A stretch of 64,000 bases of DNA from positions 310,001 through 374,000 of the forward strand of contig CALUTQ010000002.1 in assembly GCA_944323745.1 (NCBI GenBank), read 5' to 3'. Shown here one piece after another: positions 3,051 to 63,303 of this stretch. How positions within the stretch are numbered: position 1 is the stretch's first letter; every line of letters begins with the position of its first letter. Position numbers and translations under genes: made by a program. The DNA is from Candidatus Avelusimicrobium pullarium (GTDB taxonomy: Bacteria > Elusimicrobiota > Elusimicrobia > Elusimicrobiales > Elusimicrobiaceae). The notes below the pieces were generated by a model that saw only the letters and a program-made list of their open reading frames with translations, was not told the DNA's origin and did no database searches.

Positions 3051-3081
3051 CGGGGGAAAACGTCCGGTGCGTTTTCCCCCG
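3051..3081 (-). other. 11-bp-stem hairpin between portal and Bbp19-like genes
   Basis: Perfect stem CGGGGGAAAAC/GTTTTCCCCCG with a 9-nt loop, inside the 113-bp gap after the portal gene. No T-run follows on the minus strand. It is probably an mRNA processing or attenuation structure, similar in placement to the hairpins at 595-616 and 1021-1086. Confidence 0.55.
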
Positions 3082-3138
3082 GCACTGCGCGGGGGCGCTC
3101 GTTAATTTTAGGCCGCCCCGCGGCGCAGCTTTTTAAAC

Positions 3139-4728
3139 TTATTTATCCGCCGCGGACGCATTTTTGGTTTGCGCATTGGCTTGCGCCAGCAAAACCTGCT
3201 GCCGCTGGCGGCGTATTTGAGCCGCTTCTTCATCCGAGCGCAGCACGGAAGGGGACACGCCCAGCATTTCCAGTCCTTCTTCCAGGGCGGCATCAAAATT
3301 AATTTTGTCTATTACCTGCGGGTTGCCCTGCGCCAAGGCCGTGGTAAACGAAATGCCTTGCTGCAAAGCCGCCATACCGCTTTGTTTTTGGGCTTGTGCA
3401 ATCATAGAAACGTATTGCACCTTCAAGTCCTGCCCCTGAATTTCAGGCGGCGGCAGCGGGATAACGCCGCGGCGGTACATCAGCGCAAAGGTGCGTTCAA
3501 TCAGCGGGTCCAACAGTTCGTTTTTCAGCCGCTCCAACACCGGCCCCAGCACCAGCATTTTTTCCTGATGGCGTTCGGCCACTTCGGTAGCGGTCATACG
3601 GGTAAAATTCTGCGTGCTGAGCATTAGAAATACGTCGGCAAAAAATTGGCTTTTAATGGTTTGTTTTACGCGTTCTATGCTTTGTTCCAACGCATTTAAA
3701 TCTACCGGCACCTGATAAGCGGGCTTGACGGCGGCGTCGCTGCCGCTGCCGCTGTAGCGCGTCAAGCCGCCGGGCAGCAGGTTTACCTCTCCCTGCACGT
3801 TGGCAGACACCATCATCGGCGGGTTGGTGTTTTTATCCAGCGCGACGAGTTTGGTCTTCTGCATTTTTTGCAGCATTTTAACGTCGCCCAAACATTTCCA
3901 GCCGGGCCCGCGGCCGTATACGTCGCAGGAATTGCGCACTTCCCAACGGGCGGCAATGACGGGAAATTCGCGGTATCCGCCGCGGCGCAAAATATCTCCC
4001 TGCGGCGTAAAATAAACGGATATATAGGGCATATGCAATTGGTCCAGTTTGCTTTCGTCTGCCTGTTCGTTGGGCAAAATGACGTGTTGCACTTTAAACC
4101 AACCGCTGCGGTTTTCCTGTGCGGCGCGGCGAATGTTCTGCGGCAGATTTTCCGCCCCGAACTGCTGTTTCATTTGCGGCGCGGTAAGCCAAAACTCCCG
4201 CCCGAAAGCGTTCACGCGGCCTTGCCCGTCGCAGTCCAGCACATATTCGCCGGCAGTAAAAGAACGGCAGTTGATTACGCGGTCAAAATCTTCTTCCAGC
4301 AAAAAAGCCGCCGTGCCAAAAACGGAAATTTCCTGATAAAACCCGTGCAGCGTGTTGTACACATTGCTGCGGGCAAACACTTCTTCCATACGGCGGCGCA
4401 CTTCATAAAGCCAGGCGCGCACGGCACTTTGCTTCATCATTTCTCCGTCGGCCAAAGACAGCTCAAACCACGTGCGCCCCGGGCTGGTCAACCCAGACAC
4501 CATTCCCGCGCTTAACACTTCCACCGCCATCAGCGGGTCGGAATCTATCAGCGTGCGGTGGTCTATTTTGCGCCCGTCGCCGGGGCGGTCCCCTTCAAAA
4601 AAACCGCGCGTCGGGGCGATATAGCGCGCCAGCTCTTTCCAGGCGCTTTGCCAGTCGCGCGACTGGGTTTTCATTTCTTCATAGCGCGTGCGGAAATAGT
4701 CCGCATTCTGCATATTTTGTGAAGTCAT
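3139..4728 (-). CDS. Phage portal (head-to-tail connector) protein
   Basis: A 529-aa protein with the features of the podovirus head-tail connector family (Head-tail_con). An N-terminal region covers YEEMKTQSRDWQSAWKELAR and YIAPTRGFF. GMVSGLTSPGRTWFELSL follows, and the acidic segment EISVFGTAAFLLEED lies near residues 130-145. The C-terminal half has RMTATEVAERHQEKMLVLGP. The dodecameric portal forms the DNA entry channel and docks terminase and the short tail. Length fits the family. Start is ATG with GGTGAT upstream. It is the first gene of the operon read from the promoter at 5176-5204, with a leader of about 440 nt. Confidence 0.9.
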   Translation of the reverse strand: MTSQNMQNADYFRTRYEEMKTQSRDWQSAWKELARYIAPTRGFFEGDRPGDGRKIDHRTLIDSDPLMAVEVLSAGMVSGLTSPGRTWFELSLADGEMMKQSAVRAWLYEVRRRMEEVFARSNVYNTLHGFYQEISVFGTAAFLLEEDFDRVINCRSFTAGEYVLDCDGQGRVNAFGREFWLTAPQMKQQFGAENLPQNIRRAAQENRSGWFKVQHVILPNEQADESKLDQLHMPYISVYFTPQGDILRRGGYREFPVIAARWEVRNSCDVYGRGPGWKCLGDVKMLQKMQKTKLVALDKNTNPPMMVSANVQGEVNLLPGGLTRYSGSGSDAAVKPAYQVPVDLNALEQSIERVKQTIKSQFFADVFLMLSTQNFTRMTATEVAERHQEKMLVLGPVLERLKNELLDPLIERTFALMYRRGVIPLPPPEIQGQDLKVQYVSMIAQAQKQSGMAALQQGISFTTALAQGNPQVIDKINFDAALEEGLEMLGVSPSVLRSDEEAAQIRRQRQQVLLAQANAQTKNASAADK

Positions 4729-4853
4729 AAATCACCTTTTGTTTAATTTGTACTGCCAAAAATCAGCCAAGTATTTATACGGAAAATTTATTAGGATATA
4801 AGAAGAACAAACATCTATGCGTCCGCCGTGGGCGCTAGAACAGGAGGGTTTGT

Positions 4854-5033
4854 ATGTGGAGCATTATTTTGATTTTGGTTTTTGCCGCGCTGGTGGGGTT
4901 CCCGGGGTTTTATATCATTACCCGACAGGTCTTTAAAGGCGGCAGCCGCAAAACGGCTTTTTGGCTTTCGGCTTTACTGACGGTGCTTTTGGTAGGGCTG
5001 CTGGCTGTGGTAATGGCCGGCGCGCCGCTGTAA
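4854..5033 (+). CDS. Small two-helix membrane protein opposite the portal leader
   Basis: A 59-aa open frame with a strong AGGAGG six bases before the ATG. It encodes a hydrophobic helix (residues about 3-21), a short basic hairpin (RQVFKGGSRK) and a second helix (about 35-56). Small proteins with two membrane helices in a phage block are often holins, but no endolysin is visible next to it, so this is only a possibility. It is the only credible plus-strand gene in the phage block and lies fully antisense to the long leader of the portal operon. No clear promoter is seen for it. A stand-alone toxin or accessory membrane protein is equally possible. Confidence 0.55.
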   Translation: MWSIILILVFAALVGFPGFYIITRQVFKGGSRKTAFWLSALLTVLLVGLLAVVMAGAPL

Positions 5034-5175
5034 ACCGAAAAATAAAAAGAAGGGATTGCCCGCATAGGGGCCCAAAAAAGCACGGGCCGAAAAAGCGGAT
5101 AAGCAATCTTTAAACCGAAAACAGGAATTTGCCCCGGACGGGGCCAAAAAGACAAGCAAGACTTATTATGGAAAG

Positions 5176-5204
5176 ATTATAGCATAATTTGTTAGTTTTG
5201 TCAA
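5176..5204 (-). promoter_or_regulatory. Consensus sigma70 promoter for portal-head operon
   Basis: On the minus strand TTGACA (5199-5204) and TATAAT (5176-5181) are separated by exactly 17 bp, with TGC just before the -10. It shares TTGACAAAAC and TGCTATAAT with the promoter at 7441-7469. It lies in an AT-rich gap after TerL and would start the portal, Bbp19-like, scaffold, capsid and cement transcript with a long leader. Confidence 0.85.
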
Positions 5205-5288
5205 TATTTTTATTTTTATGTTTTACTTTTTACGTCGTAGAAAAATAAAAAATATTTTTTACTAACTTTTTATTTGTAAGTATTTGTT

Positions 5289-6605
5289 TTACAGCACATT
5301 ATATTCCGTGCGGGCAAATTCCGCCCCGCAGGCGCGTTTGGCAACCGGCAAAGCAAACGTAAGCGCCAGCGCATCGGCCAAATCGGGGCTGCGGCCGGTA
5401 CGGGCTTTTAAATCTTCTTTGCTTTCCAGCTTTAAGCGGCCGGCGGCATCAAAAGAATAACGTAAGCCGCACAAGTCCGCTTTTAAGGCCGGGTCGGACG
5501 GCAAGGCACCGCCGGCCTGCAGCCAGTCCTTCATTTTCCCCCACATTTCCGCACGCTTATTGGCATACTGTCCAGCCTTCAGCGGGGCCGCGCCAAAGTT
5601 AATTTCCGTCACGCCGAAACCCAACTGGCGCAGGCGGTCTATCACCCCGCCGCCGCAGCCGGCGTCTATAAATACGGCGTCGGGACGAAAGCTTTGTATG
5701 GTTTGGGCGGCACGGGCGGCCAAGGTCATATTGTCTGTTTTGCAAAACACTTCCGGCGCAAAAGCCTGCAGGCCCTGCCGGCGGAAAATAACGCTGCGGT
5801 CGGCCCCAAAGCGGGCGGGGTCTATGCCCAGCACCTTGGGGGCGTGGGCTATTTCCGCCGTGCCGTAACGGCGGGAGGCCGCCTCCGACACCAGACTGAT
5901 GGGGATAAGCACGTCCTGCGCGTCGGCCGTAAAATCGCATAAATATTCCTGCCGGAACAAATTGGGCGGCGTACGGCGGCGTATTTCGGCCAATTCTTCC
6001 GGCGCGATGACGCCCGTTTCGTCTGCCGGAAAGACGCCGCACCACCAAAGCAACGGCTCTGTTTGGGCCGCTTTAGAAGCGTAATTATACAGTTCGTAAA
6101 ATTGGTTTTGTCCTTTGGGCGTGCCCGTAAACAAAGCCCATCCGCCGCGCGAAAGAAGCATAGGGCGCACGATTTCGTCAAAAACGGCAGGCTTAATTTG
6201 AGCATATTCGTCCAGCACTACGCCGTCGGCATAGGTACCGCGCAGAGCGTCGGGGTTATCGGCCCCCAGCAGCCATATTTTGGCGCCGCCGGGCAACTGC
6301 ACGCACAGCTCCGTTTCCGACAGTTTAACCCCCGGCAGCGGCGCGCTGAAACGTTTGATATAGTCCCAAGCAATCAGTTTGGTTTGTTTTAAAAATGGGG
6401 CTATATAAAAATAACGCGGTGCGGGGCGCGTATTGGTCAGCGCGCTTTTGAGCAAATGATTGACAGCGCACACCGTTTTGCCCATTTGGCGGTGCGTAAC
6501 CAGCACGCAAAAACGGTGGGTTTCCAGCGCTTTGTGTATCAGCGTTTGCGGATAACGCGGCTTGTACGGGATGACTATTTCTCGCGGAGAAATTTTCTTT
6601 TTCAT
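5289..6605 (-). CDS. terL: Phage terminase large subunit
   Basis: A 438-aa packaging motor. The N-terminal ATPase has a Walker A-like THRQMGKT at residues 37-44 and a Walker B-like GVVLDEYAQ near residue 130. The C-terminal nuclease has acidic residues in LGIDPARFGADRS, VFIDAGCGGGVIDRL and a final LADALALTFA. It pumps genomic DNA into procapsids through the portal and cuts it. The ATG at 6605 is preceded by GGGAGAAAG at ideal spacing, so I preferred it over an upstream TTG at 6617. It overlaps the TerS stop as ATGA, which implies translational coupling. Confidence 0.92.
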   Translation of the reverse strand: MKKKISPREIVIPYKPRYPQTLIHKALETHRFCVLVTHRQMGKTVCAVNHLLKSALTNTRPAPRYFYIAPFLKQTKLIAWDYIKRFSAPLPGVKLSETELCVQLPGGAKIWLLGADNPDALRGTYADGVVLDEYAQIKPAVFDEIVRPMLLSRGGWALFTGTPKGQNQFYELYNYASKAAQTEPLLWWCGVFPADETGVIAPEELAEIRRRTPPNLFRQEYLCDFTADAQDVLIPISLVSEAASRRYGTAEIAHAPKVLGIDPARFGADRSVIFRRQGLQAFAPEVFCKTDNMTLAARAAQTIQSFRPDAVFIDAGCGGGVIDRLRQLGFGVTEINFGAAPLKAGQYANKRAEMWGKMKDWLQAGGALPSDPALKADLCGLRYSFDAAGRLKLESKEDLKARTGRSPDLADALALTFALPVAKRACGAEFARTEYNVL

Positions 6606-7327
6606 TCTTTCTCCCAACGCACAATAACGGTGCCCAGCGGTTTTTTGCCGTCGTCTTTGCCGTCGGTCCAGCCCAACAGATTTTTGGCGGTAAATACCGC
6701 AAAAGACGCCGAATAATTGCCGCGCAAACTGTTTTGAATAAGAATGTCCCCCTGCAAATCCCGCGCTTTTTTGGCCGCTTCGGCAAAGGCGGGATGAGCA
6801 TCTTCCCAGTCTTGCAAAACCGCCTGCGTTACCCCCAAGGTGCGGGCAAAGGCCGCAAAAGTGGGCAGCTCGCTGGCGCTTTCCAGCAACGTAATGCTGC
6901 CGTCTTTTTTTTGCACCTCCGTTACTTTAAACGGAGGCACGTCAAAAAAGGCCAAAAGCTGCCGGCAAAATTCGGGGCGATAGGAAACCCTATCCGTCGC
7001 TGTTTTGACCGTTTTTAACCGCTTTACAGTGCGTTTTGTGCGCGGTTTGGCTTTTTGGTTACTGCTTGTTGAAACACAAGCCGTTTTTACCTTCGCCTTG
7101 GCGCAAGGGGATACAGCAGACGAAGCGGCCGGCAAATTATTTTCATCCGCCGTTTGCTTGCAGGCGGACGCGTCCGCCGGAGCAGACAGCAGGGTAGCGT
7201 CAACTGCAGAAGAAGCACCGGCAACGGCTTGCGGCATCGTTGGCACGCCGGAAGGCGCTACCTCGGCGCAAGGAACGGCGGACGCCGCCGCAGAAGCGGC
7301 AGACGCTATAGTGGGTTTAGAAGACAA
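6602..7327 (-). CDS. terS: Phage terminase small subunit with low-complexity N-terminus
   Basis: About 241 aa. The C-terminal half has the helix-turn-helix pattern of small terminases: YRPEFCRQLLAFF, LPTFAAFARTLGVTQAVLQDW, and EDAHPAFAEAAKKARDLQ. It is followed by the NYSASFAVFTAKNLLGW segment often seen in such proteins. It recognises phage DNA and hands it to TerL. The first ~100 residues are Ala/Ser/Pro-rich and then basic. I chose the TTG at 7327 because AGGAG lies six bases upstream; an ATG at 7348 and a TTG at 7414 lack good ribosome binding sites. It is the first gene after the promoter at 7441-7469. Confidence 0.75.
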   Translation of the reverse strand: MSSKPTIASAASAAASAVPCAEVAPSGVPTMPQAVAGASSAVDATLLSAPADASACKQTADENNLPAASSAVSPCAKAKVKTACVSTSSNQKAKPRTKRTVKRLKTVKTATDRVSYRPEFCRQLLAFFDVPPFKVTEVQKKDGSITLLESASELPTFAAFARTLGVTQAVLQDWEDAHPAFAEAAKKARDLQGDILIQNSLRGNYSASFAVFTAKNLLGWTDGKDDGKKPLGTVIVRWEKE

Positions 7328-7409
7328 AATAAACTCCTGTCCGGGCATATAAAACCCGGTTGAACAAAAGAAGATAGAAGAAAAAAAGGACTGCAAAAGG
7401 ACAAAAAAA

Positions 7410-7433
7410 TACAAACAGTTAGGAATGTTTGTA
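7410..7433. promoter_or_regulatory. Candidate operator overlapping the TerS transcription start
   Basis: Perfect inverted repeat TACAAACA/TGTTTGTA with an 8-bp centre, beginning 7 bp downstream of the -10 of the promoter at 7441-7469. Its position over the predicted start site fits a repressor operator. A 5' mRNA hairpin is the alternative. No copy is found at the sister promoter at 5176. Confidence 0.5.
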
Positions 7434-7440
7434 TATTTTT

Positions 7441-7469
7441 ATTATAGCAAATTATAGTTGTTTTGTCAA
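7441..7469 (-). promoter_or_regulatory. Consensus sigma70 promoter for terminase genes
   Basis: On the minus strand TTGACA (7464-7469) and TATAAT (7441-7446) are exactly 17 bp apart, with TTTGC directly before the -10. It stands at the right border of the phage gene block and points into terS-terL. The 175 bp from here to the next gene hold nothing else that I can support. Confidence 0.87.
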
Positions 7470-7644
7470 ATAAAATTTTACAATGTGCCCCCTACATCAG
7501 CAAAATAATATGCCGAAGCAAACAGGACGGACGCCCTCAAACGCGGCGCGTCTTTTTTAGTATACGGGAAAGGCGGCAAATGAGCCGGCGGAAAGCCTTG
7601 CGCACACGAACGGGGCGCCTTGGCAGACAAGAGCCAAAAAGAGG

Positions 7645-9309
7645 TTAACGGGCGCCGTCGGCCCAGCGCCAGAAGGCGTCTTCAAAGTTGGCCGTGGTAT
7701 TATAGCGGTAAGCACGGGCCATTGCTTTTTCGGCCGAATAGGGTTGATAGACCGGCTTGCCGTTTCTGTCGCGCGCGGGGAAGCCGGTGCGCGGATCGCG
7801 CACTTGTTCGCCCTGGGACATTAAGCGGGTAAACTGCTCAAACTGCATACGGTTGGAAGGGGATACACCCCCCGACGGATTTAACAAAAAGCGCACCATT
7901 GCATACGCCTGAAAATACCAGTCCTGCGTTTTGTTCTTCCCCTCCATAACAGAGAGGGAGCCGTCTTCCATAAACTGGTCAAAGGGCATAAAATACAACG
8001 GGGCGCCGCGGCCTTTTTGCCCCGACGTAAACGAACGGGCACTGCCAAACATATTGCTGGAAGAAAAATTAGCTACTTCCGTTTCTTTGCTGCGCCGGAA
8101 ATTGAGCGTTTTAAAATCATTCGCCCACGGTCCGCCCTTGGTGCCGTTATAGGCCTGATCTTCCATATAGACGGCAAGGCCCTCGTCCAGCCAAACGGGC
8201 GTCATCAAGCGGCCGGTATTATGTTTGTCAAAAAACTTTTGCGTAAAAATATGAACCAGCTCGTGCGTAAAAACTTCTTTGAGCTCCTGCTGTTTGCCCG
8301 GCTCGTCATACACCACAATTTCGCCGCGGGTGGGATAGGCCAACGCGCGCGTCCAGGCTTGGGCATTGGGTTCGTGTTTCAAATAGCTGTTATGATCCTG
8401 ATACACAAATACACGCACTTTATCGCTCATCATCCACGGAATATTGCGGCGCAGGGTGGTATAGGCGGACTCAAAAATCATCCCCATATTGGAAGAACTG
8501 ATGCCGTTATCACGCTTTTGCGTATAGATGGTAAAATGGGTGGTGTTGGAAGGCTTCCACTCCACGCCCGGGCGGTAATCGTTGGGGTTAAACGGACGGT
8601 TAGACGGCTGCGCCGGAACGGTTTGGGCAGTTTCGGCCGCAGAAGGCGGAATAAAACGTCCGCCGGAAATCATTTCTTTAGACTGGCGCAACATACGGGC
8701 GGCATAGTCCAGTTCTTCTTGGGCTATAGCCTGCTCAGGGGCTTGCTCGCTTTCCGCCGCGGTGCCGGCCGCAGCAGCCGAAGAACCGGTGCGCTCCCCC
8801 TCTATTAAAGCATTATTTTTTTCTATATCCTGTTCCACAGGCGTAGCCGCTTTGGCCGCCGTTTTGGGGGCGGAAACAGCCGTTTTTTTGGCGGCCGGCT
8901 TGGCCGTACGCACAGAACGGGAAGCGGCCTTAGTTACCGAAGCGGCCGGAACTTGCGTTTTGACTACCGCGCCGGAAGAAAGAGGCATTTCCAAAAAGTT
9001 TCCGCCGGAAGAAGCTGCCGTTTGAGATACAGGCGTTTTGGATGCCGCCGTTTTAGCCGCAGATGAAGCGGCCGGCTGCTGTGCCGAACTTTTAGCGGTA
9101 ACGGCCGTTTGGGTGGAAACTGCCGCCGAGGAAGAAGATGCCGAAGATGCCACGTCGGACCCCTTCAGCGAATTTTTTATCAAATCAATACTGGACGGAG
9201 GCGCCGCCACCGCATTGCCGGACTCAGACTGCTGCCCATAAGACACCGTCTGCGCAAACGATGGCACACAAAGACAAAGAGATAAAAATAAAAAGATGTA
9301 CTTTTTCAT
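7645..9309 (-). CDS. Secreted zinc metallopeptidase, MA-like gluzincin
   Basis: A 554-aa protein with a signal peptide (MKKYIFLFLSLCLCVPSFAQ). A long Ala/Ser/Lys-rich, probably disordered region covers residues 25-240. A C-terminal peptidase follows with HELVH (His349, Glu350, His353) and a downstream WLDEG (Glu376), the HExxH plus distal Glu arrangement of the peptidase MA-like family. It should hydrolyse peptides outside the inner membrane; the substrate is unknown. It is the last gene of the pilus operon, following the minor pilin at 9331 by about 20 bp, so a role in pilin, matrix or host-protein cleavage is possible but unproven. The start has GGAG upstream. Confidence 0.8.
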   Translation of the reverse strand: MKKYIFLFLSLCLCVPSFAQTVSYGQQSESGNAVAAPPSSIDLIKNSLKGSDVASSASSSSAAVSTQTAVTAKSSAQQPAASSAAKTAASKTPVSQTAASSGGNFLEMPLSSGAVVKTQVPAASVTKAASRSVRTAKPAAKKTAVSAPKTAAKAATPVEQDIEKNNALIEGERTGSSAAAAGTAAESEQAPEQAIAQEELDYAARMLRQSKEMISGGRFIPPSAAETAQTVPAQPSNRPFNPNDYRPGVEWKPSNTTHFTIYTQKRDNGISSSNMGMIFESAYTTLRRNIPWMMSDKVRVFVYQDHNSYLKHEPNAQAWTRALAYPTRGEIVVYDEPGKQQELKEVFTHELVHIFTQKFFDKHNTGRLMTPVWLDEGLAVYMEDQAYNGTKGGPWANDFKTLNFRRSKETEVANFSSSNMFGSARSFTSGQKGRGAPLYFMPFDQFMEDGSLSVMEGKNKTQDWYFQAYAMVRFLLNPSGGVSPSNRMQFEQFTRLMSQGEQVRDPRTGFPARDRNGKPVYQPYSAEKAMARAYRYNTTANFEDAFWRWADGAR

Positions 9310-9330
9310 CAGGCTCCGTCCGCTTTCTGT

Positions 9331-9783
9331 TTACAGGTTGTCGCTCCCTTGCGTAATTTCGTACGTCAGCTGCCACATTTGGCCTGAATTGGCAGAGGCG
9401 TCTTCCACAAAATACGCTTTCACTTTATAAGGATCTCCGCCCACCGGGTTGGCAATGATACATTCATACGTCGGCACAATATTGGCGGCCGGGCAAGTGT
9501 TGACGTTGGTGCCCGTCCCCGAGCAATACATATACGGCACGCCGTTGTTGCCCACGCCGTTCCAATCGCGTCGGAAGGCTTCCGGCGACTTATTGGACCA
9601 CAGCGAGTTTACTTCCGCCATACAAGTTTGTATCAGCACTTGCGCCGAAGCTACACGGCGCGTGCGGCGGGCCGACACCGTACGGGAAAGAGAAGCCCGA
9701 AGCAACATCGTGGCAATACCGGCCAAAATAATCGTAATCAACAGCACTTGCATTAAAGCGGCGCCTTTTTTGTTTAATTTCAT
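9331..9783 (-). CDS. Minor pseudopilin, GspK/PilX-like (lacks Glu5)
   Basis: A 150-aa protein with a prepilin leader ending in KKG, then AALMQVLLITIILAG as the hydrophobic N-helix. After cleavage behind Gly, residue 5 is Gln instead of the Glu conserved in most pilins. That loss is characteristic of tip subunits of the GspK/PilX type. The remaining domain has two pairs of Cys-containing segments and SNGVG-like loops. It lies last among six pilin-like genes downstream of PilC. Start chosen at ATG with AAAGGGG upstream. It probably caps the pilus together with the next three upstream-encoded minor pilins. Confidence 0.7.
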   Translation of the reverse strand: MKLNKKGAALMQVLLITIILAGIATMLLRASLSRTVSARRTRRVASAQVLIQTCMAEVNSLWSNKSPEAFRRDWNGVGNNGVPYMYCSGTGTNVNTCPAANIVPTYECIIANPVGGDPYKVKAYFVEDASANSGQMWQLTYEITQGSDNL

Positions 9784-9794
9784 AAAAACCCCTT

Positions 9795-10508
9795 TTAATA
9801 GCCCATAGGCATTGCAAACACTTCTTCCATTACTTCATTAATAATGGGTTTGCTGTTTAATTCCGTAATCAAACGGATGGTAAGCAAGCTTTTGGTCCAA
9901 TCACGGCTTAACGAATGCGCCGCAAACAACGGCACCGGATAAGAACCGTTAATGTATTTTACATTGCTAAGTACCAAATCATCTTCCGACAAGCTGTTGC
10001 AGGACGGATAATTGCCGCCGGAACCGGATACTTCTTCCACCACCCGATATATTTTCCCTCCGCGGTAGGCGCCGGAAGGCGAAATATTGGTGTTATCCGA
10101 ACCGCGTTTAAAACAATACGTAATGCGGGAGGCTTCCAGCGTTTCGCTGTCGGAGGCAGTATTATACGTATTAATGATTTGCCGGCCTTCTCCGTCCAAA
10201 TTTTTGGACAATTTAAGCAGCGGCACCGCCGTGGTGCCCACACTGCCCAATGTGCCGGCAATAAAATCTACGCGGGAGGCCGTATGCATATCATTGCGTA
10301 AAATACGGGCAAAAGTAGACAAATTATTGCGCAGCATAATGCGGCTGCGGCCGACGCCGGCTTCGCGCGAAGCCGCACGCGTTAAAGAGGCCAGCGCCAC
10401 GGCAATCAGGCCGACGATCATAACCGCCAGCAAAATTTCCGTCAGCGTAAAACCGCGGCGGCTGCGCCAGTTCATTTGACTGATAAAATAAAAATGTTTT
10501 TTTCTCAT
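9795..10508 (-). CDS. Minor pilin, PilW/GspJ-like
   Basis: 237 aa with an unusually long basic leader (MRKKHFYFISQMNWRSRRG) before the cleavage site, then FTLTEILLAVMIVGLIAVAL with Glu5 present. A second in-frame Met at residue 12 could be the true start. The long C-terminal domain and place between a PilV/GspI-like and a GspK-like gene suggest the PilW/GspJ position of a tip complex. The start overlaps the upstream gene's stop (ATGA), implying coupled translation. Confidence 0.7.
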   Translation of the reverse strand: MRKKHFYFISQMNWRSRRGFTLTEILLAVMIVGLIAVALASLTRAASREAGVGRSRIMLRNNLSTFARILRNDMHTASRVDFIAGTLGSVGTTAVPLLKLSKNLDGEGRQIINTYNTASDSETLEASRITYCFKRGSDNTNISPSGAYRGGKIYRVVEEVSGSGGNYPSCNSLSEDDLVLSNVKYINGSYPVPLFAAHSLSRDWTKSLLTIRLITELNSKPIINEVMEEVFAMPMGY

Positions 10509-11017
10509 AAAGTAAACCCGTTACACGTAATAGTAAAATTTACCTTATACAAACTATGCGTAGACACATCCGTTGCCGTGCCCGTATAACCGCCGGAGGA
10601 ATCCCGTTTGCGCATTAAATCGGCACTGCGCGGCAAGACGGGGCTTTGTGTGGTTACGGTGTAGGTAAAGCTGGAATTGTTTCGGTCGCACAGCGGCGGA
10701 AGCAGACATTCAATATTGTGACCTACACCCGTAGCCAACGGGGCATAAGCGTCATAACCTTCGCACAAAGCGGTGTCTACCGTGCTTTGCATATCGCTGG
10801 AAAGGGCATCTCTGTCCGAGTAAATATACACCTGCAGCAACTGGCTGGCTTTTTCCACCGCCAGGGCCATTTCTTCCCGCACATCCGGCTGAGAGCTGGT
10901 ACGGGAGGTGCTCAGCAGTACAGCAAACGTCCCCGTAGCCACCAACGCCAAAAGCGTTAAAGCTATAAGCCCTTCCAAAATAGTTACACCCTTGTTGTTT
11001 TTAAGAAATTTTTTCAT
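10505..11017 (-). CDS. Minor pilin, PilV/GspI-like
   Basis: 170 aa with leader MKKFLKNNKG and N-helix VTILEGLIALTLLALVATG, keeping Glu5. The VTILEGLIAL pattern resembles PilV/GspI subunits, which start tip assembly together with J and K types. The globular part has several Cys residues (DTALCEGYD, IECLLPPLCDRN, FTITCNG). Good SD (AAGGAAT) before the ATG. It lies in the row of six pilin-like genes after PilC and overlaps the next gene by 4 bp. Confidence 0.7.
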   Translation of the reverse strand: MKKFLKNNKGVTILEGLIALTLLALVATGTFAVLLSTSRTSSQPDVREEMALAVEKASQLLQVYIYSDRDALSSDMQSTVDTALCEGYDAYAPLATGVGHNIECLLPPLCDRNNSSFTYTVTTQSPVLPRSADLMRKRDSSGGYTGTATDVSTHSLYKVNFTITCNGFTL

Positions 11018-11026
11018 AGCAATTCC

Positions 11027-11569
11027 TTACTCTGCGTTATCTAATACCTGCATATCTTTACCCACAGACATAAAATAACCGGATATTTCTTCATATTTGC
11101 TGCCGGCATCGTCCGTATGTCCCACCGCCCCGGCATACACCACGTTGGAAGGGTTTCTTTCCAGCGCCACACAGGGGGCCGTCCCGATAGCGTAACTGTC
11201 GCCGCAAAGGACAAACGTATAAGGAAGATTGGCAAAGTCTTTCCAATCTAAAAAACCGCAGGCAAAAAGCTGGCCGACATCTGAATCGGTACGCGAACCC
11301 GGAATGCCGCTGGCCGCCACATTATTGCAACTTGTACCGGAATAGATGCTGTTTTCATAAGCAGCCGAAAAACTGCCGGTAACATCCGACCCTTTTGTAT
11401 ACTGATAATAGCTGCGGCGGGCTTCTGCCAATTTGCGCAAAGCGGCTTTTGCCCGGCTATTATACACATCGTAACGCACCGAACGGATGGCCGGCGTAGC
11501 AAAACTGACGACCAATGCTATTACCAGTAATACAAATAAAATTTCCATTAATGTAAAGCCTTTTTTCAT
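11027..11569 (-). CDS. Type IV pilin-like protein
   Basis: 180 aa starting MKKGFTLMEILFVLLVIALV, a classic class-III-type prepilin signal with short leader and Glu5. The C-terminal domain contains Cys pairs (TSCNN, FACGF, VLCGD, APCVA) that may form disulphides in the periplasm. The open frame continues upstream to 11731, but the ATG at 11569 has AAGGATG before it and gives the proper leader. Function is as a major or minor subunit of the local pilus; the order of genes gives no closer assignment. Confidence 0.75.
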   Translation of the reverse strand: MKKGFTLMEILFVLLVIALVVSFATPAIRSVRYDVYNSRAKAALRKLAEARRSYYQYTKGSDVTGSFSAAYENSIYSGTSCNNVAASGIPGSRTDSDVGQLFACGFLDWKDFANLPYTFVLCGDSYAIGTAPCVALERNPSNVVYAGAVGHTDDAGSKYEEISGYFMSVGKDMQVLDNAE

Positions 11570-57291: not shown

Positions 57292-57930
57292 ATGCTATAC
57301 AAAAAAATCATTATCTTCTTTGCCGGCCTTTTCTTTTGCGGCTTCGGCACCGCCATTTCCACCCAAGCGGGGCTGGGCACTTCGCCCATATCCAGCCTGC
57401 CTTACGTGCTAACGTTTATTACGCACCTGTCTTTCGGTACGACTACGTTTATTGTCAATATGTTTTTTATTCTGACACAGGTTTTGCTGTTGAAAAAAGA
57501 TTTTAAAAAAACCCAATACCTGCAAATTTTAGTAACGCTTTGCTTCGGCTTTTTTATTGATTTGGGTATGTATTTGGCCGCCCCGTTTAAAATGGACATT
57601 TACGGCGGGCAGCTGTTAATGCTTATCATCGGCTCGGCTATTTTGGCCTTTGGCATTACGCTGGAAGTAATTGCCAACGTAATGTATGTGCCCGGGGAAG
57701 GCGTCGTCAAAGCCATTGCCCAAAAGACACAGCATAAATTCGGCAACGTCAAAGTGCTTTTTGACGCTTCCCATTGTGTGCTGGCCTTGTCTATCAGTTT
57801 GCTTATTCTGCACGCCGTGCACGGCCTGCGCGAAGGGACGATGCTCTCTATGCTGCTGGTGGGAAACCTGGTCATTGTATACGGCAAAATATGGAACAAA
57901 CTGGCCGGGCGCTTTCACCTTAAAGTTTAG
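57292..57930 (+). CDS. YczE/DUF6198-like membrane protein
   Basis: 212 aa with about five membrane helices. It opens FAGLFFCGFGTAISTQAGLGTSPISSLPYV, a pattern of the YczE/YitT-like family, and has FGITLEVIANVMYVPGEGVVKAIAQ. The function of this family is not established. SD AAAGGAAA. Its stop overlaps the convergent radA stop by 4 bp. A palindrome (GGCCGGC/GCCGGCC) and ACGGCAGCTGCCGT lie in the gap after the MATE gene. Confidence 0.78.
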   Translation: MLYKKIIIFFAGLFFCGFGTAISTQAGLGTSPISSLPYVLTFITHLSFGTTTFIVNMFFILTQVLLLKKDFKKTQYLQILVTLCFGFFIDLGMYLAAPFKMDIYGGQLLMLIIGSAILAFGITLEVIANVMYVPGEGVVKAIAQKTQHKFGNVKVLFDASHCVLALSISLLILHAVHGLREGTMLSMLLVGNLVIVYGKIWNKLAGRFHLKV

Positions 57931-59291
57931 CGCAGTTTGAGGGCCAGTTCGTTTATTTCGGTAATTTCCTGCAAGGAAAGTGAGGTCAGTTTTTTCTTTT
58001 CTTCTTTGGACAGCGGGGCACAAAACGCCTTGGTAAAGCCCAAACGCTGGGCTTCTTCCAGCCGTCGGTCCATCATCGGCACTTTGGCAATTTGGCCCAA
58101 AATGCCCACTTCGGCCAAGAACATCCAATCGTGCGGTACCGGCACGTCTTTTACCGAGCTGATTACCGCCGCGCAGACGGCTAAGTCCAAAGCGGGGTCT
58201 TTCAGCTTTACGCCGCCGGCAATACTGACGTAAATGTCTTTATTGTCCAGCGAGAGCCCCACGTGCTTTTCCAGCGCGGCAAAAAGCATTAAACAACGGT
58301 TTAAATCTACCCCCGTGGCAATACGCCGCGGATAGGGATAATGCGTCGGGCTGGCCAGAGCCTGCACTTCGGTTAAAATAGGGCGGGAGCCTTCCAGCGC
58401 CAGTGTATAGGCGCGGCCTTTTAAAGCACTGCGGGCGGAGGTTTGGGCAAAATATTCGCCGGCGTTTTCCACCCCTTCCAAACCGTGGCCCGTCATTTTA
58501 AACAGGCCGATTTCCTGCGTAGAACCGAAACGGTTTTTATGCGGGCGCAAAAGGCGCAGCACATTATCTTTTTCCGTGTCAAAATACAGCACGCAGTCCA
58601 CCATATGCTCCAAAATTTTCGGCCCGGCCAATTCGCCGTCTTTGGTTACGTGCCCCAGCACAAAGGTAATAATGCCTTTGGGCTTGCACAAGCGCACCAG
58701 CTCGGCGGCGCATTCGCGCACTTGGCCAATGGTGCCGGCGGAGGAGGTAAACTCGGGGTGATAGACGGTTTGAATAGAGTCCAGCACTAGCACATCGGGG
58801 TTTACGTTTTCCACCGATTCTATAATGTTTTGGATATTAGTTTCGCAATGCAAAAAGATGTTGGGGTTATTTACGCCCAAGCGCCGGGCACGGCCGGAAA
58901 TTTGGCTGATGCTCTCTTCGCCGGAGATATAAAGCACTTTTAAGTGTTTGGCCAAAGCGTCTGCCACTTGCAGCATAAGCGTGCTTTTGCCGATGCCGGG
59001 TGCGCCGGCCAAAAGCGTAATTTGCCCTTTGACCAGCCCGCCGCCAAGCAGGCGGTCAAACTCGCCGATGTGGGTGGGGATGCGGTCTTCTTTTACGGCG
59101 CGGCTGTCGGAAAGCTTTACGATTTCAGATGAAAAATCGGTAAACGAGCGGGTACGTTTTTCTTTTTTGCTTTCCTGCTGTTTTACTTCCTCGGCCAAGG
59201 TATTCCACTCCCCGCATTCGGGGCATTGCCCCGACCATTTGGGCGACTCATAACCGCATTTCTGGCACACAAACACCGTTTTAAATTTCAT
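57927..59291 (-). CDS. radA: DNA repair protein RadA
   Basis: 454 aa. Zinc finger CQKCGYESPKWSGQCPECGEW, Walker A GAPGIGKST, the RadA motif LRPHKNRFGSTQEIG, and a Lon-protease-like C-terminal domain (DIYVSIAGGVKLKDPALDLAV). It is a RecA-like branch-migration ATPase. The ATG at 59291 has AGGGGT upstream; the upstream in-frame GTG was not used. Last gene of the mla-alr-dnaB run. Confidence 0.96.
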   Translation of the reverse strand: MKFKTVFVCQKCGYESPKWSGQCPECGEWNTLAEEVKQQESKKEKRTRSFTDFSSEIVKLSDSRAVKEDRIPTHIGEFDRLLGGGLVKGQITLLAGAPGIGKSTLMLQVADALAKHLKVLYISGEESISQISGRARRLGVNNPNIFLHCETNIQNIIESVENVNPDVLVLDSIQTVYHPEFTSSAGTIGQVRECAAELVRLCKPKGIITFVLGHVTKDGELAGPKILEHMVDCVLYFDTEKDNVLRLLRPHKNRFGSTQEIGLFKMTGHGLEGVENAGEYFAQTSARSALKGRAYTLALEGSRPILTEVQALASPTHYPYPRRIATGVDLNRCLMLFAALEKHVGLSLDNKDIYVSIAGGVKLKDPALDLAVCAAVISSVKDVPVPHDWMFLAEVGILGQIAKVPMMDRRLEEAQRLGFTKAFCAPLSKEEKKKLTSLSLQEITEINELALKLR

Positions 59292-59299
59292 AGCCACCC

Positions 59300-60568
59300 C
59301 TAACGGGCCATTGTAGCCAGGCCGAAGAACGAAGAAATATCCTGGTCGTTAAACGAGATATTGGCCTTGACGTTGAAATAGTTGGTTTCCATCACGTCGC
59401 GCATCCAGGCGCCGACGGAGAAATACTTGCTCACGCGGTAATCCACCCCGTAAGACAAATTGGGTTTATTAAACAAGCGTCCGTTGATGGTGCGGTCGCG
59501 GCCCCAGTCGGTAAATTCCACACCGGCCGTAAAGCGCTGCAAGAACTCGTGGTTATAGAAGGGCTTCACTTCCATTGCCACGCCGCCGGCGCCGCGTATC
59601 ATACCGGCAGAGAGGTTGGCCCATTTATTATACAGGCCAAAGCGCAAATCCAGTTTGTTGCGTTCCACATAGTCGCCGTCGCCCAAGGTGTCGTCTTCAT
59701 TGCCGATGTTGGCTATGCCGGCGCGGTAATAGGTGTAGCCGCTGGACGGAAAGATTTCCAGCGCCAAGTCGCTGGTGGCCACGCCCGGGCCGGTGGCATA
59801 GAAAAAGTCATAGTCCCAATACACGCGGAAGCGGCTCATCTTGCCCACAAAAGATTTTACTTCCGTCATCGTTTGCTTCAGTTCGCCCACGCTTTGTTTT
59901 ACTTGGTCTTTCATTTCCGTATCTTTAATCAGCGTGCCCAGCACCCCGTCCTGATTGGTTATGCTGTCCATAATGCCGTTTAATTTATTGGTAATGTCTT
60001 CCAAATTTTTCATAGACGTAGTCACGTACGGGCGCATAGTGGCCACCAGCTGATTGACGTTGGCGGAAAGCTGGCGGATATCGCGCATAGCGTCGTTGAG
60101 CTGGGCGCCAAACTGCCCTTGGTTATGAATGCTGTCCACCAACTCTTTTACACTGGCCATTGTTTCGGCAATTTGCTCGTCCATCGGTTTTTCGTCCACG
60201 CCGCGCACATAAGAGCCTGCTTGCAAAACGCCCAAGGCTTCTTCCCCTTGGGTTACTTTAATGTACTTGGTGCCGATAATACCCGTCATCACGACGGCAA
60301 ATTTGGCGCCTTTATATATGGGCACATCTTCGTGGATAGCCGCCACCACAATGACTTTTTGGTTTTCAATCTTAATGTCCTTTACCTTGCCCACTTCCAC
60401 GCCGGACAATTTGACGGCCGCTTTAACCGGCAGGCCGGAAACGTCTGCAAATTCCACATTCAAATCATAACTGCGCGTGATGGAAAAGCCGCCCAAAAAA
60501 TATAAAGACAGCCCCAGGACTATCAGCCCCAAAACGGTAAATATGCCAAGTTTAGTTTCCGGTTTCAT
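59300..60568 (-). CDS. mlaD: MlaD-like MCE protein with C-terminal beta-barrel-like region
   Basis: 422 aa. One N-terminal helix (GIFTVLGLIVLGLSLYFLGG) is followed by an MCE domain at ~35-125 (VKLSGVEVGKVKDIKI, VVAAIHEDVPIYKGAKFAVV, GIIGTKYIKVTQG). Helical coiled parts cover 130-240. The last ~180 residues resemble a small outer-membrane barrel: alternating strands with aromatics (YWDYDFFYATGP, LDLRFGLYNKWANLSAG, MEVKPFYNHEFLQRFTAGVEF, YFNVKANISF). Standard MlaD ends soon after MCE. It should carry lipids between membranes with MlaE/F. Confidence 0.85.
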   Translation of the reverse strand: MKPETKLGIFTVLGLIVLGLSLYFLGGFSITRSYDLNVEFADVSGLPVKAAVKLSGVEVGKVKDIKIENQKVIVVAAIHEDVPIYKGAKFAVVMTGIIGTKYIKVTQGEEALGVLQAGSYVRGVDEKPMDEQIAETMASVKELVDSIHNQGQFGAQLNDAMRDIRQLSANVNQLVATMRPYVTTSMKNLEDITNKLNGIMDSITNQDGVLGTLIKDTEMKDQVKQSVGELKQTMTEVKSFVGKMSRFRVYWDYDFFYATGPGVATSDLALEIFPSSGYTYYRAGIANIGNEDDTLGDGDYVERNKLDLRFGLYNKWANLSAGMIRGAGGVAMEVKPFYNHEFLQRFTAGVEFTDWGRDRTINGRLFNKPNLSYGVDYRVSKYFSVGAWMRDVMETNYFNVKANISFNDQDISSFFGLATMAR

Positions 60569-60654: not shown

Positions 60655-61419
60655 TTATTCCCGCATCAGTTTCATTTGTATCGGCCCGTGGCTGGAGCCG
60701 TCCACAAACTGGCGCACGTAGGGGTTATCCGTTTTGCGCAATTCCTCCGGCGTGCCGTACATCAAAATTTCTCCTTCATACAAAAAAGCAATGTAGTCCG
60801 ATATTTTAAAAGCCGAATGCATATCGTGCGTAATGACCACGGAAGTAACGCCTATTTTCTTTTTCATTTCCAAAATCAAATCGCTGATAATATCGGACAT
60901 AATGGGGTCTAAACCGGTTGTGGGCTCATCATACAAAATACACTTGGGGCTGATGGCCAGCACGCGTGCCAAGCTGACGCGTTTACGCATACCGCCGGAA
61001 AGTTCCGACGGGTTAAGTTTGGCCACTTCCGGCTTTAGGCCCACCATAGCCAGTTTTTCTTTCACCACCGCGGCATATTGGCTTGGGGGCACGTCGGTCA
61101 AATACGAAAGGCCAAAAGCCACGTTTTCCCCCACGGTCATAGAGTCAAACAACGCCCCTTCCTGAAACAAATACCCGAAATGGCGCCGCACGGCCGCCAG
61201 CCGGAACGGGTCTTTAATGCGGGTAATGTCTTTGCCTTTTACGATGATTTCCCCGCCGTCGGGGTCCAGCAGGCGCATCATACACTTAATCAGCGTGCTT
61301 TTGCCCGAGCCCGAGCCGCCCAAAATAGAGGTTACTTTGCCGTCCTCTATATTCAGGTTGACGTCTTTAAGCACGTGATGTGCGCCAAAACTTTTTTTGA
61401 GATGTTTTATTTCTATCAT
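60655..61419 (-). CDS. mlaF: ABC ATPase of MCE lipid transporter
   Basis: 254 aa. Walker A GGSGSGKSTLI, Q-loop, signature LSGGMRKRVSLARV and Walker B KCILYDEPTTGLDP. MlaF-typical LMYGTPEELRKTDNPYVRQFVDG near the end. It powers lipid movement with MlaE. The start is directly after the mlaE stop. An 86-bp gap follows before mlaD. Confidence 0.95.
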   Translation of the reverse strand: MIEIKHLKKSFGAHHVLKDVNLNIEDGKVTSILGGSGSGKSTLIKCMMRLLDPDGGEIIVKGKDITRIKDPFRLAAVRRHFGYLFQEGALFDSMTVGENVAFGLSYLTDVPPSQYAAVVKEKLAMVGLKPEVAKLNPSELSGGMRKRVSLARVLAISPKCILYDEPTTGLDPIMSDIISDLILEMKKKIGVTSVVITHDMHSAFKISDYIAFLYEGEILMYGTPEELRKTDNPYVRQFVDGSSHGPIQMKLMRE

Positions 61420-62196
61420 TTAAATTCCAAAAGCCGTCAAAATGGCGGTCAGGAAATAATCCAGCACCAAAATCATCACTATGCACGTGACCACCGCTCC
61501 GGTGGTAGACTTACCCACCCCTTCTGCCCCTCCGCGTGTGCTTATGCCCTTATAGCAGCACACGGTGGCCACCAAAAAGGCAAAAATGAAGGACTTAATA
61601 AAACCGTGCATAAAGTCGGACACGCCCATAAAGGCCGTAATATCGGTGGAGTACACTTCCCCCGGTACGCCCAAAGCATATACCGCCACCAAATAACCGC
61701 CGATAACACCAAATAAATTGGAAAAAATAGTTAAAATAGGCATCGTCAGCAGAAAGGCAAACAAACGGGGAATGACCAAATACTGCGTCGGATTCGTGCC
61801 CAGCGTGTGCAGCGCGTCCAGCTGCTCGGTAACGGCCATTGTGCCGATATGCGCCGTTACGGCCGCGCCGGCCCGTCCGGCCACCACCACGCCCGTCAGC
61901 ACGGGGCCCAACTCACGAATGAGGGAAAAAGAAACAATGGTGCCCACGTAAATCGGGTCGCCAAAAATACTGTTAATGGTATTGCCCGCCTGCAAGGCAA
62001 GCACCATACCGGTAAACAAACTGGTCAGCGCCGTAACGCCAAAGGACTCCACCCCGATCGTCACGCTTTGCTGTACAAACTGTTTAAATTCAAAGCGCGA
62101 ACGCACCAGCCAAAACCCCACCGAGCGCACCATATTGGCCGCCCCGCCGGTCTGGGTCATCCAGTTCATCATATATTTACCGATTAGCGTAAACAT
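61420..62196 (-). CDS. mlaE: MCE transporter permease MlaE
   Basis: 258 aa with five or six membrane helices. Marks are FGVTALTSLFTGMVLALQAG, SLIRELGPVLTGVVVAGRAGAAVTAHIGTM, EQLDALHTLGTNPTQYLVIPR, and CYKGISTRGGAEGVGKSTTGAVV, the MlaE family signature. It forms the inner-membrane channel with MlaF and MCE proteins. It follows alr without a gap. No MlaA, B or C homologue is seen. Confidence 0.94.
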   Translation of the reverse strand: MFTLIGKYMMNWMTQTGGAANMVRSVGFWLVRSRFEFKQFVQQSVTIGVESFGVTALTSLFTGMVLALQAGNTINSIFGDPIYVGTIVSFSLIRELGPVLTGVVVAGRAGAAVTAHIGTMAVTEQLDALHTLGTNPTQYLVIPRLFAFLLTMPILTIFSNLFGVIGGYLVAVYALGVPGEVYSTDITAFMGVSDFMHGFIKSFIFAFLVATVCCYKGISTRGGAEGVGKSTTGAVVTCIVMILVLDYFLTAILTAFGI

Positions 62197-63303
62197 TTAT
62201 TCTTTGTAAAACCTCGGCACACGCGGCATAAGCAGTGTGGTCAGTTCATAATCTATGGTGCCGGCTTTGTCTGCCAGTTCTTTGGCGCGTATTTCCTGCC
62301 CGCCCTGCCGGCCGATAAGCACCACTTCATCGCCTACGCGCGCATCGGGCACGGCGGAAATATCCACCATACTCATATCCATTGTAATATTGCCTAAAAT
62401 GCGGCAGCGTATGCCCTTTATCAACACTTCGGCTTTGTTGGAAAGACTGCGCAGATAGCCGTCGCCGTATCCTACGGGGATAGTGGCCACCTTCATCGCG
62501 CAAGGTGCAATAAAACTGCGGTTGTAGCTAATGCTGGCGCCGGCGGCTACGTCTTTGGCAAACACAATGCGGCTTTTAAAAGAGAGCACGGGTTCGTAGC
62601 CTTCCGAAAGGCCGAATGCAGAATGCCCCGCGCGCACCATATCGCAATAGCTGTCGGGCCGCAGTTCAATAGCCGGCGATGCGGCCATATGGCAAATTTG
62701 CACCGGTATTTTGTGCAGGCGCACATTGGTCATCGTATCGCGGAAATAGCCGATTTGTTCTTCGGTATAAGCCGGGTCGCTGTCCACGCTGGAAAGGTGC
62801 GTAAACAAGCCTTCCAAAATTACGTTTTCGTCGCCGTTTAATTCGTGGATAATGTGCATTACGCCGCCGCGGCGCGTGCCGATGCGGCCCATTCCGCTGT
62901 CCTGCTTAACGTGGCAGCGGGCTTTTTTGCCCAGTTTGCGCGCAATTTGTTTAATGGCTTTGGCCGCTTCCAAACTGGCCACGGCTACCGACAAATCATA
63001 GTTAATGGCATATTCAAACGCTTCAAACGGATAAATACTGCCCAGCACCAAAATAGGCAACTTTACCCCCGCCTGACGCAGCAAAATGCCTTCTTCCACC
63101 GACGCGGCGCCAAAGAATTGACACAAGCCGTGCTTTTGGGCATACAGGCCCAGCTGTTCGGCCCCGTGCCCATAGGCATTGGCTTTCAGCACGCCTAAAA
63201 TCTTTACCTCAGGCCCTACTTTGGCGCGTATTTTTTGCAAATTGCGCCCGTAGGCCCCCAAATCAACGTCTGCCCACGTGGGGCGTAAAAAAGGAATGTT
63301 CAC
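62197..63303 (-). CDS. alr: Alanine racemase
   Basis: 368 aa. PLP lysine in LGVLKANAYGHG, CHVKQDSGMGRIGTR, and the catalytic Tyr region (ASISYNRSFIA). VATIPVGYGDGYLRSLSN and GNITMDMSMVDIS complete the family marks. It makes D-alanine for peptidoglycan. The start is GTG at 63303 with GGAG five bases upstream. It starts 2 bp after dnaB. Confidence 0.94.
   Translation of the reverse strand: MNIPFLRPTWADVDLGAYGRNLQKIRAKVGPEVKILGVLKANAYGHGAEQLGLYAQKHGLCQFFGAASVEEGILLRQAGVKLPILVLGSIYPFEAFEYAINYDLSVAVASLEAAKAIKQIARKLGKKARCHVKQDSGMGRIGTRRGGVMHIIHELNGDENVILEGLFTHLSSVDSDPAYTEEQIGYFRDTMTNVRLHKIPVQICHMAASPAIELRPDSYCDMVRAGHSAFGLSEGYEPVLSFKSRIVFAKDVAAGASISYNRSFIAPCAMKVATIPVGYGDGYLRSLSNKAEVLIKGIRCRILGNITMDMSMVDISAVPDARVGDEVVLIGRQGGQEIRAKELADKAGTIDYELTTLLMPRVPRFYKE

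What the first reader, a model, noticed from the sequence alone, without database searches (positions are those of the whole stretch)
59300..60568. MCE protein ending in a beta-barrel-like region
After a usual MCE domain the protein continues for about 180 residues of alternating strands with amphipathic, aromatic-rich pattern and a terminal ATMAR, which looks like an outer-membrane barrel. Such a fusion could span from inner to outer membrane without a separate MlaA/MlaC.
Basis: inference. Interest (0 to 1): 0.5.

Follow-up and report, generated by a model that had tools for sequence, protein, structure and literature searches.

The report
Membrane-bridging lipid transport protein, MlaD type
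This gut bacterium makes a lipid-transport protein whose front end sits in the inner membrane and whose tail is predicted to be a small barrel in the outer membrane, a bridge design already described in another bacterium and here found across most of its phylum.

Summary
AlphaFold2 with a 42-sequence alignment gives ten main strands plus a C-terminal helix (pLDDT 84.6, pTM 0.76). The best structural matches are outer-membrane barrels (OpcA Z 15.1, Pla 13.4, designed TMB10 12.9). Its gene stands in a dnaB-alr-mlaE-mlaF-mlaD-radA run. In its genome I found no MlaA, no MlaC and no second MCE gene. Of 198 genomes of the phylum (Elusimicrobiota by record titles), 168 have the barrel, 4 MlaC, 2 MlaA.

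The kind is known: Grasekamp et al. 2023 (PMC10665443) described this architecture in Veillonella parvula. Additions here: phylum-wide carriage; barrel-less MlaD in three families; mlaEFD missing between alr and radA in two small genomes; and one genome (G086) whose dnaB-alr-...-radA slot holds MlaA-MlaC-RND transporter instead of MlaEFD. Outer-membrane insertion and lipid transport are inferred; two sequence tests of the barrel's membrane face were inconclusive or negative.

The parts
59300..60568 (-). long MlaD, 422 aa
60494..60562 (-). N-terminal transmembrane helix, residues 3-25
   Evidence: AF2 helix H3-25; hydrophobic in sequence
60197..60472 (-). MCE domain, residues 33-124
   Evidence: Pfam MlaD 33-108; AF2 strands 33-124
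59837..60184 (-). helical spacer, residues 129-244
   Evidence: AF2 helices, low confidence, ten-residue means about 44-61
59348..59827 (-). ten-stranded beta-barrel, residues 248-407
   Evidence: AF2; structure matches; alternation
59306..59344 (-). C-terminal helix after the last strand, residues 409-421
   Evidence: AF2; conserved D408/D410
60655..61419 (-). MlaF, ABC ATPase, 254 aa
   Evidence: Pfam ABC_tran; NCBIfam MlaF best hit, below its cut-off
61420..62196 (-). MlaE permease, 258 aa
   Evidence: Pfam MlaE E 7.5e-75; TIGR00056 over cut-off
62197..63303 (-). alanine racemase (alr), conserved upstream neighbour
   Evidence: sequence; synteny; name from knowledge of the family, no family search run
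57927..59297 (-). radA, conserved downstream neighbour
   Evidence: sequence; synteny; name from knowledge of the family, no family search run

Best explanation
The protein is a trans-envelope MlaD. Its N-terminal helix anchors it in the inner membrane on the MlaE-MlaF ABC transporter, its MCE domain forms (as characterised MCE proteins do) a hexameric ring, its helices form a tunnel or strut across the periplasm, and its C-terminal ten-stranded barrel is inserted in the outer membrane. MlaF ATP hydrolysis drives lipid movement between the membranes along this fixed bridge, which makes the OM lipoprotein MlaA and the shuttle MlaC unnecessary. Shown here: the domain order, the predicted fold, the gene run, the lack of MlaA and MlaC matches, the phylum-wide conservation. 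Inferred: the hexamer, insertion in the outer membrane, lipid as cargo, and direction (retrograde by analogy with V. parvula and E. coli). The V. parvula barrel was judged too narrow for lipid (PMC10665443, Discussion), so the barrel is more likely an anchor or part of a larger opening than the conduit itself.
For: AF2: ten main strands, pLDDT 84.6, pTM 0.76, same strands in the full-length model. VIA-align: OpcA 1k24 Z 15.1 over 150 residues at 3.3 A, Pla 2x56 Z 13.4 over 137 at 2.9 A, designed TMB10_163 Z 12.9 over 128 at 2.8 A; 36 of 50 rows are membrane barrels by title. Foldseek's first five rows are OM barrels, weakly (best E 9.3e-4). Hydrophobic face 1.0% charged residues against 35.8% on the other face. 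MlaF gene beside MlaD in 68 of 69 relative loci. No MlaA or MlaC match, one MCE gene. Barrel in 168 of 198 genomes. BamA-family gene in 26 of 26 genomes searched, own included. In G086 the same slot carries MlaA-MlaC-RND, and no MlaE or MCE domain is found. Precedent in V. parvula: barrel construct in OM fractions, mutants with lipid-asymmetry phenotypes.
Against: Soluble barrels also match: 13 of 50 rows by title (BFA1 Z 11.1, DUF3598 Z 10.8). Alternation alone does not tell an inward from an outward hydrophobic face; the faces do not differ in conservation (1539 of 5000). A two-ended aromatic girdle, reported for V. parvula, was not found: aromatics are not enriched at strand ends (0.15 against 0.23; 4250 of 5000), though those at ends gather at the presumed periplasmic end (0.29 against 0.01). 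The helical spacer is modelled poorly. Families f11-f13 have a barrel-less MlaD though they hold a BamA-family gene, so the barrel is dispensable somewhere. Of 4 genomes with MlaC, 3 (G044, G084, G108) also have the barrel MlaD, and so does 1 of 2 with MlaA (G187).
Confidence: 0.8

Rival explanations
1. The C-terminal domain is a soluble, lipocalin-like beta-barrel in the periplasm that binds one lipid inside, a built-in MlaC: it takes lipid from the outer membrane and feeds the MCE tunnel.
For: Soluble barrels match the model with Z 11.1 and 10.8; face conservation and the girdle test do not settle the orientation; a helix after the last strand is unusual for an OM barrel (recalled).
Against: Membrane barrels score highest (15.1, 13.4, 12.9) and make up 36 of the 50 rows by title; the polar face holds 35.8% charged residues and 15.7% glycine, as the lumen of a small OM barrel does (recalled); in V. 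parvula the barrel construct ran with the outer-membrane fractions.
Confidence: 0.12
2. The barrel is only an outer-membrane tether that holds the bridge at the right distance; lipid enters at the periplasmic face of the outer membrane, and families f11-f13 could drop the barrel because the helical tube alone reaches the membrane. (A special case of the best explanation, not an alternative to the bridge.)
For: No barrel in 10 of 10 genomes of f11-f13; nine of their MlaD genes read whole end after the helices; the f11 and f12 rows stand among barrel-bearing lineages in the MlaE+MlaF tree; the published barrel was judged too narrow for lipid.
Against: No direct evidence on what the barrel does.
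Confidence: 0.4
3. The system is an importer of some other lipid or hydrophobic nutrient, as mycobacterial Mce transporters are.
For: Mycobacterial MCE proteins are implicated in fatty acid and cholesterol transport (PMC9882608, start of abstract in the listing); cargo untested here; NCBIfam Mtu_fam_mce is the best-scoring model, below its cut-off.
Against: The slot swap with MlaA-MlaC in G086 and the linkage to MlaE and MlaF point to envelope lipid upkeep.
Confidence: 0.1

Closest known systems
Trans-envelope MlaEFD of Veillonella parvula (Grasekamp et al. 2023, PMC10665443)
   Same: Nearly the same length (419 aa there, 422 here), same order TM - MCE - long helix - ten-stranded C-terminal barrel, same three-gene system, no MlaA or MlaC (abstract, passages, structure section, Discussion part 1 of 2 seen).
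   Different: Phylum; gene neighbours (radA downstream here, tolC and tamB there); helical spacer about 115 residues here against about 150; aromatic girdles top and bottom there, not found here. Homology of the two barrels by sequence was not tested, as no V. parvula sequence was at hand.
Six-component Mla system of E. coli
   Same: MlaE, MlaF and the MCE domain of MlaD.
   Different: E. coli MlaD is 183 aa and works with MlaA, MlaB, MlaC; here no MlaA or MlaC is found and MlaD has about 240 more residues.
MlaA-MlaC-RND modules, akin to hopanoid HpnM-HpnN
   Same: In G086 such a module sits where MlaEFD sits in relatives. Its MlaC has HpnM as best NCBIfam hit; its RND protein has the HAE3 family first and HpnN third; all are below cut-off.
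   Different: It is not in the window; no MCE protein, no ABC transporter.

Membership tests
Trans-envelope (barrel-type) MlaD | N-terminal TM helix and a single MCE domain | tested here: met
Trans-envelope (barrel-type) MlaD | long helical extension after the MCE domain | tested here: met
   helices 129-244, low confidence
Trans-envelope (barrel-type) MlaD | C-terminal ten-stranded beta-barrel | tested here: met
   ten main strands, best matches OM barrels (that OpcA and Pla have ten strands is recalled); closure judged from the matches, coordinates not seen
Trans-envelope (barrel-type) MlaD | hydrophobic outer surface flanked by aromatic girdles | tested here: inconclusive
   alternation strong, but face orientation not decided and aromatics not enriched at strand ends
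Trans-envelope (barrel-type) MlaD | encoded with MlaE and MlaF; no MlaA or MlaC in the genome | tested here: met
Trans-envelope (barrel-type) MlaD | barrel homologous in sequence to the V. parvula barrel | not tested
Trans-envelope (barrel-type) MlaD | barrel located in the outer membrane; mutant loses lipid asymmetry | not testable with these tools
   needs experiments
Six-component (E. coli type) Mla | MlaA and MlaC present | tested here: not met
PqiB / LetB type MCE proteins | more than one MCE domain | tested here: not met
   one MlaD-domain stretch

The most novel reading that the evidence does not exclude
The barrel-ended MlaEFD bridge and an MlaA-MlaC-RND shuttle are interchangeable machines for the same job: in one Elusimicrobiota lineage (G086) the second has taken the exact chromosomal slot of the first, and in others the barrel was shed while the bridge was kept. 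The phylum would then be a natural series of replacement and loss in which what the barrel does can be read from genomes.
Probability: 0.4. Interest if true: 0.6.

Novelty: new member of a known kind. Interest (0 to 1): 0.38.

Why it matters
How lipids cross between the two membranes of bacteria is an open question, and most knowledge comes from E. coli. A phylum that mostly uses the minimal three-gene bridge, with single lineages that lack the barrel, lack the locus, or hold MlaA-MlaC-RND in its place, gives comparisons with which the part played by the barrel can be tested.

Tried and rejected
Chance or artefact: rejected, since 180 of 198 genomes have a match to the protein (some partial) and 168 of 198 one to the barrel.

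Separate barrel gene in the barrel-less families: the barrel profile finds nothing in the 10 genomes of f11-f13, so no split version was seen.

LptD as a marker of LPS: Pfam LptD gives 14 weak matches in 198 genomes, 9 over the cut-off, none in the window's own; the family model looks insensitive here, and nothing is concluded about LPS.

Barrel outside the phylum: tblastn of one barrel against plasmids found nothing, which says little; the search for related loci kept only the best 80 of 212 relatives, and every title among the 80 that names a group names Elusimicrobi- or Candidatus Avelusimicrobium (the rest say only 'bacterium'). No cross-phylum search was possible, so the barrel's spread outside the phylum is untested.

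Solved structures: no PDB chain matches the barrel profile by sequence up to E 1; the whole-protein profile hits MCE structures over its N-terminal part and some helical proteins over the spacer, none beyond profile position 274.

Papers: Elusimicrobiota with MlaD barrels were not found (no paper; one paper, on activated sludge, not opened); the main text of PMC10665443 has no 'elusimicrob', but its genome set covered all phyla and its supplement was not read, so the phylum may be in it. For MlaA-MlaC-RND clusters, one search listed one review (not opened) and none.

G022 (listed as same genus) has no match to the protein nor to RadA and has an unlike MCE operon; it may be misplaced or mixed and was not interpreted.

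Full report
What is there. The gene lies on the minus strand at 59300-60568 and codes for 422 residues. Upstream, same strand, are mlaF (60655-61419), mlaE (61420-62196), alr and dnaB; downstream is radA. Pfam finds one MlaD (MCE) domain at residues 33-108 (E 2.3e-16), an ABC ATPase and an MlaE permease (E 7.5e-75). The NCBIfam E. coli-type MlaD model hits only residues 4-121 and below its cut-off. The names alr, dnaB and radA come from knowledge of the families; no family search was run on them.

Fold. For AlphaFold2 I used only the window protein and 41 relatives from the search for related loci. The C-terminal part (residues 236-422) gives mean pLDDT 84.6 and pTM 0.76, with ten main strands, one small hairpin in a loop and a C-terminal helix. 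The full-length model (pLDDT 70.0, pTM 0.54) has a helix at 3-25, MCE strands at 33-124, helices at 129-244 (poorly modelled), the same ten strands at 248-407 and a helix at 409-421. Against solved structures the best rows are OpcA (Z 15.1, 150 residues, 3.3 A), Pla (13.4, 137, 2.9 A) and a designed ten-stranded membrane barrel (12.9, 128, 2.8 A); soluble barrels follow at 11.1 and 10.8. By title 36 of the 50 rows are membrane barrels, 13 soluble, 1 unclear. Foldseek's first five rows are OM barrels, with weak E-values (best 9.3e-4) and mostly low TM-scores, and soluble proteins are mixed in further down. That OpcA and Pla have ten strands is recalled.

Tests on sequence. Over 40 rows (the window protein and 39 relatives, L032-L070; the barrel-less L071 dropped), hydrophobicity alternates along the ten strands with a statistic of 36.4 against 13.5 (sd 3.2) in within-strand shuffles, 0 of 5000 as high; for the window protein alone also 0 of 5000. 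The hydrophobic face has 1.0% charged residues, the other face 35.8%. Two tests did not help: the faces do not differ in conservation (1539 of 5000), and aromatics are not enriched at strand ends (0.15 against 0.23; 4250 of 5000), although the ones at ends are on the presumed periplasmic side (0.29 against 0.01). So a barrel is well supported, its membrane insertion less so: it rests on the structure matches and on the published counterpart.

Genome. The window's genome (1.616 Mb, 96.7% complete) has one MCE match, and no match to MlaC or MlaA; the control genomes ring as expected. It has a BamA-family gene. By record titles the nearest relatives are an Elusimicrobiales MAG (96% identity, L089) and others, among them Candidatus Avelusimicrobium excrementipullorum (84%, L097).

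Phylum. Of 198 genomes drawn from the phylum (own included), 180 have a match to the protein, some partial, 179 an MCE domain, 168 the barrel profile, 4 MlaC and 2 MlaA. Of the barrel rows listed (the weakest are not listed), four lie in frames under 400 aa (G095, G128, G129, G195, probably contig ends or breaks); the rest lie in frames of 411-550 aa, as a fusion requires. In 69 loci read (L003-L071), MlaF lies beside MlaD in 68, MlaE is found in 63 and radA in 64 (some loci end at contig ends).

Exceptions. (a) Families f11, f12 and f13 (10 genomes) give no match to the barrel profile. Nine of their MlaD genes were read whole (L071, L076-L083; 271-302 aa, ending after the helices); in the tenth, G021, the gene is in a 145-aa frame, perhaps cut by the contig end. 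Seven of the nine stand between mlaF and radA; L071 and L082 are cut by contig ends. A BamA-family gene is there in all nine that were searched. Seven of the ten have two MCE matches; the four second operons that I read are unlike the first and have no barrel. In the MlaE+MlaF tree the f11 and f12 rows stand among barrel-bearing lineages and need two changes, though one origin is not ruled out; the DnaB+Alr+RadA tree also draws them inside the phylum, but its count was made only against rows without mla. Both are quick trees with open forks and a long outgroup, and f13 is in neither; they favour loss of the barrel without proving it. (b) Of the 18 genomes without a match, 12 belong to one genus (g30) of small genomes. 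In the two whose locus was read (G091, G113) alr and radA are neighbours with no gene of 100 aa between and no MCE domain is found in the genome; MlaE and MlaF elsewhere were not searched there. In G017 mlaD is broken, mlaE in pieces. (c) G086, in the window's own class and sister to the four f7 rows in the tree (SH-aLRT 99), has dnaB-alr-MlaA-MlaC-RND-radA (L084; Pfam MlaA E 1e-59, MlaC 1.3e-39, MMPL 9.7e-28), and no match to MlaE, the MCE domain or the barrel. G187, of f7, has an MlaA-RND pair elsewhere beside its barrel MlaD. G044, G084 and G108 have MlaC and barrel MlaD together, so the exclusion is a tendency, not a rule. (d) G039 has no MCE domain and no MlaE; its radA has other neighbours.

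Known or new. Grasekamp et al. 2023 (PMC10665443; abstract, passages, structure section, Discussion part 1 of 2 and phylogenetic methods seen) describe V. parvula MlaD: 419 residues, TM, MCE, about 150 residues of helix, ten-stranded C-terminal barrel, no MlaA or MlaC; a barrel construct found almost only in the outer-membrane fractions; mutants with lipid-asymmetry phenotypes; a model tunnel of about 23.5 nm against a periplasm of 24.2 nm; barrels in 103 sequences, about 10%, widespread in diderm Terrabacteria and, in Gracilicutes, mainly in some Proteobacteria and near phyla. The finding is therefore a member of a described kind. The phylum-wide count, the barrel-less families and the slot swap were not found in print in the searches made, but the supplement of that paper was not readable here.

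Mechanism. I hold it most likely (0.8) that the protein bridges the envelope: inner-membrane anchor and MCE ring on MlaEF, helical tube, barrel in the outer membrane. Shown: order of domains, predicted fold, gene run, genome context. Inferred: hexamer, membrane insertion, cargo, direction. About 116 helical residues at 1.5 A each (recalled) could span some 17 nm, which with the MCE ring may suffice for a periplasm. Whether the barrel carries lipid or only anchors is open; the narrow barrel and the barrel-less families favour an anchor or docking part.

Noticed in passing
L084 (G086:C96) 3061-11121: MlaA-MlaC-RND set in the chromosomal slot that holds mlaE-mlaF-mlaD in relatives.
   Followed up: yes
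L071, L076-L083: Barrel-less MlaD of 271-302 aa in families f11, f12, f13, most ending in a charged tail.
   Followed up: partly
L185 7697-8461, L186 7757-8524, L187 4464-5381, L188 4638-5519: A second, diverged MCE operon (MlaE, MlaF, MCE of 254-305 aa) in genomes with barrel-less MlaD.
   Followed up: partly
L193, L194, L086: Small genomes of genus g30: no mlaEFD between alr and radA (L193, L194), or mlaD broken (L086).
   Followed up: partly
L085 2566-5602: MlaA directly before an MMPL/RND transporter in G187, which also has barrel MlaD.
   Followed up: partly
L046, L050, L052, L069: mlaE not found beside mlaFD in some f10 genomes (within the stretch read), though mlaF and mlaD are together.
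   Followed up: no
L189 7012-9651 (G022): A genome listed as same genus has no match to the protein or to RadA and has an unlike MCE operon; possibly misplaced or mixed.
   Followed up: no
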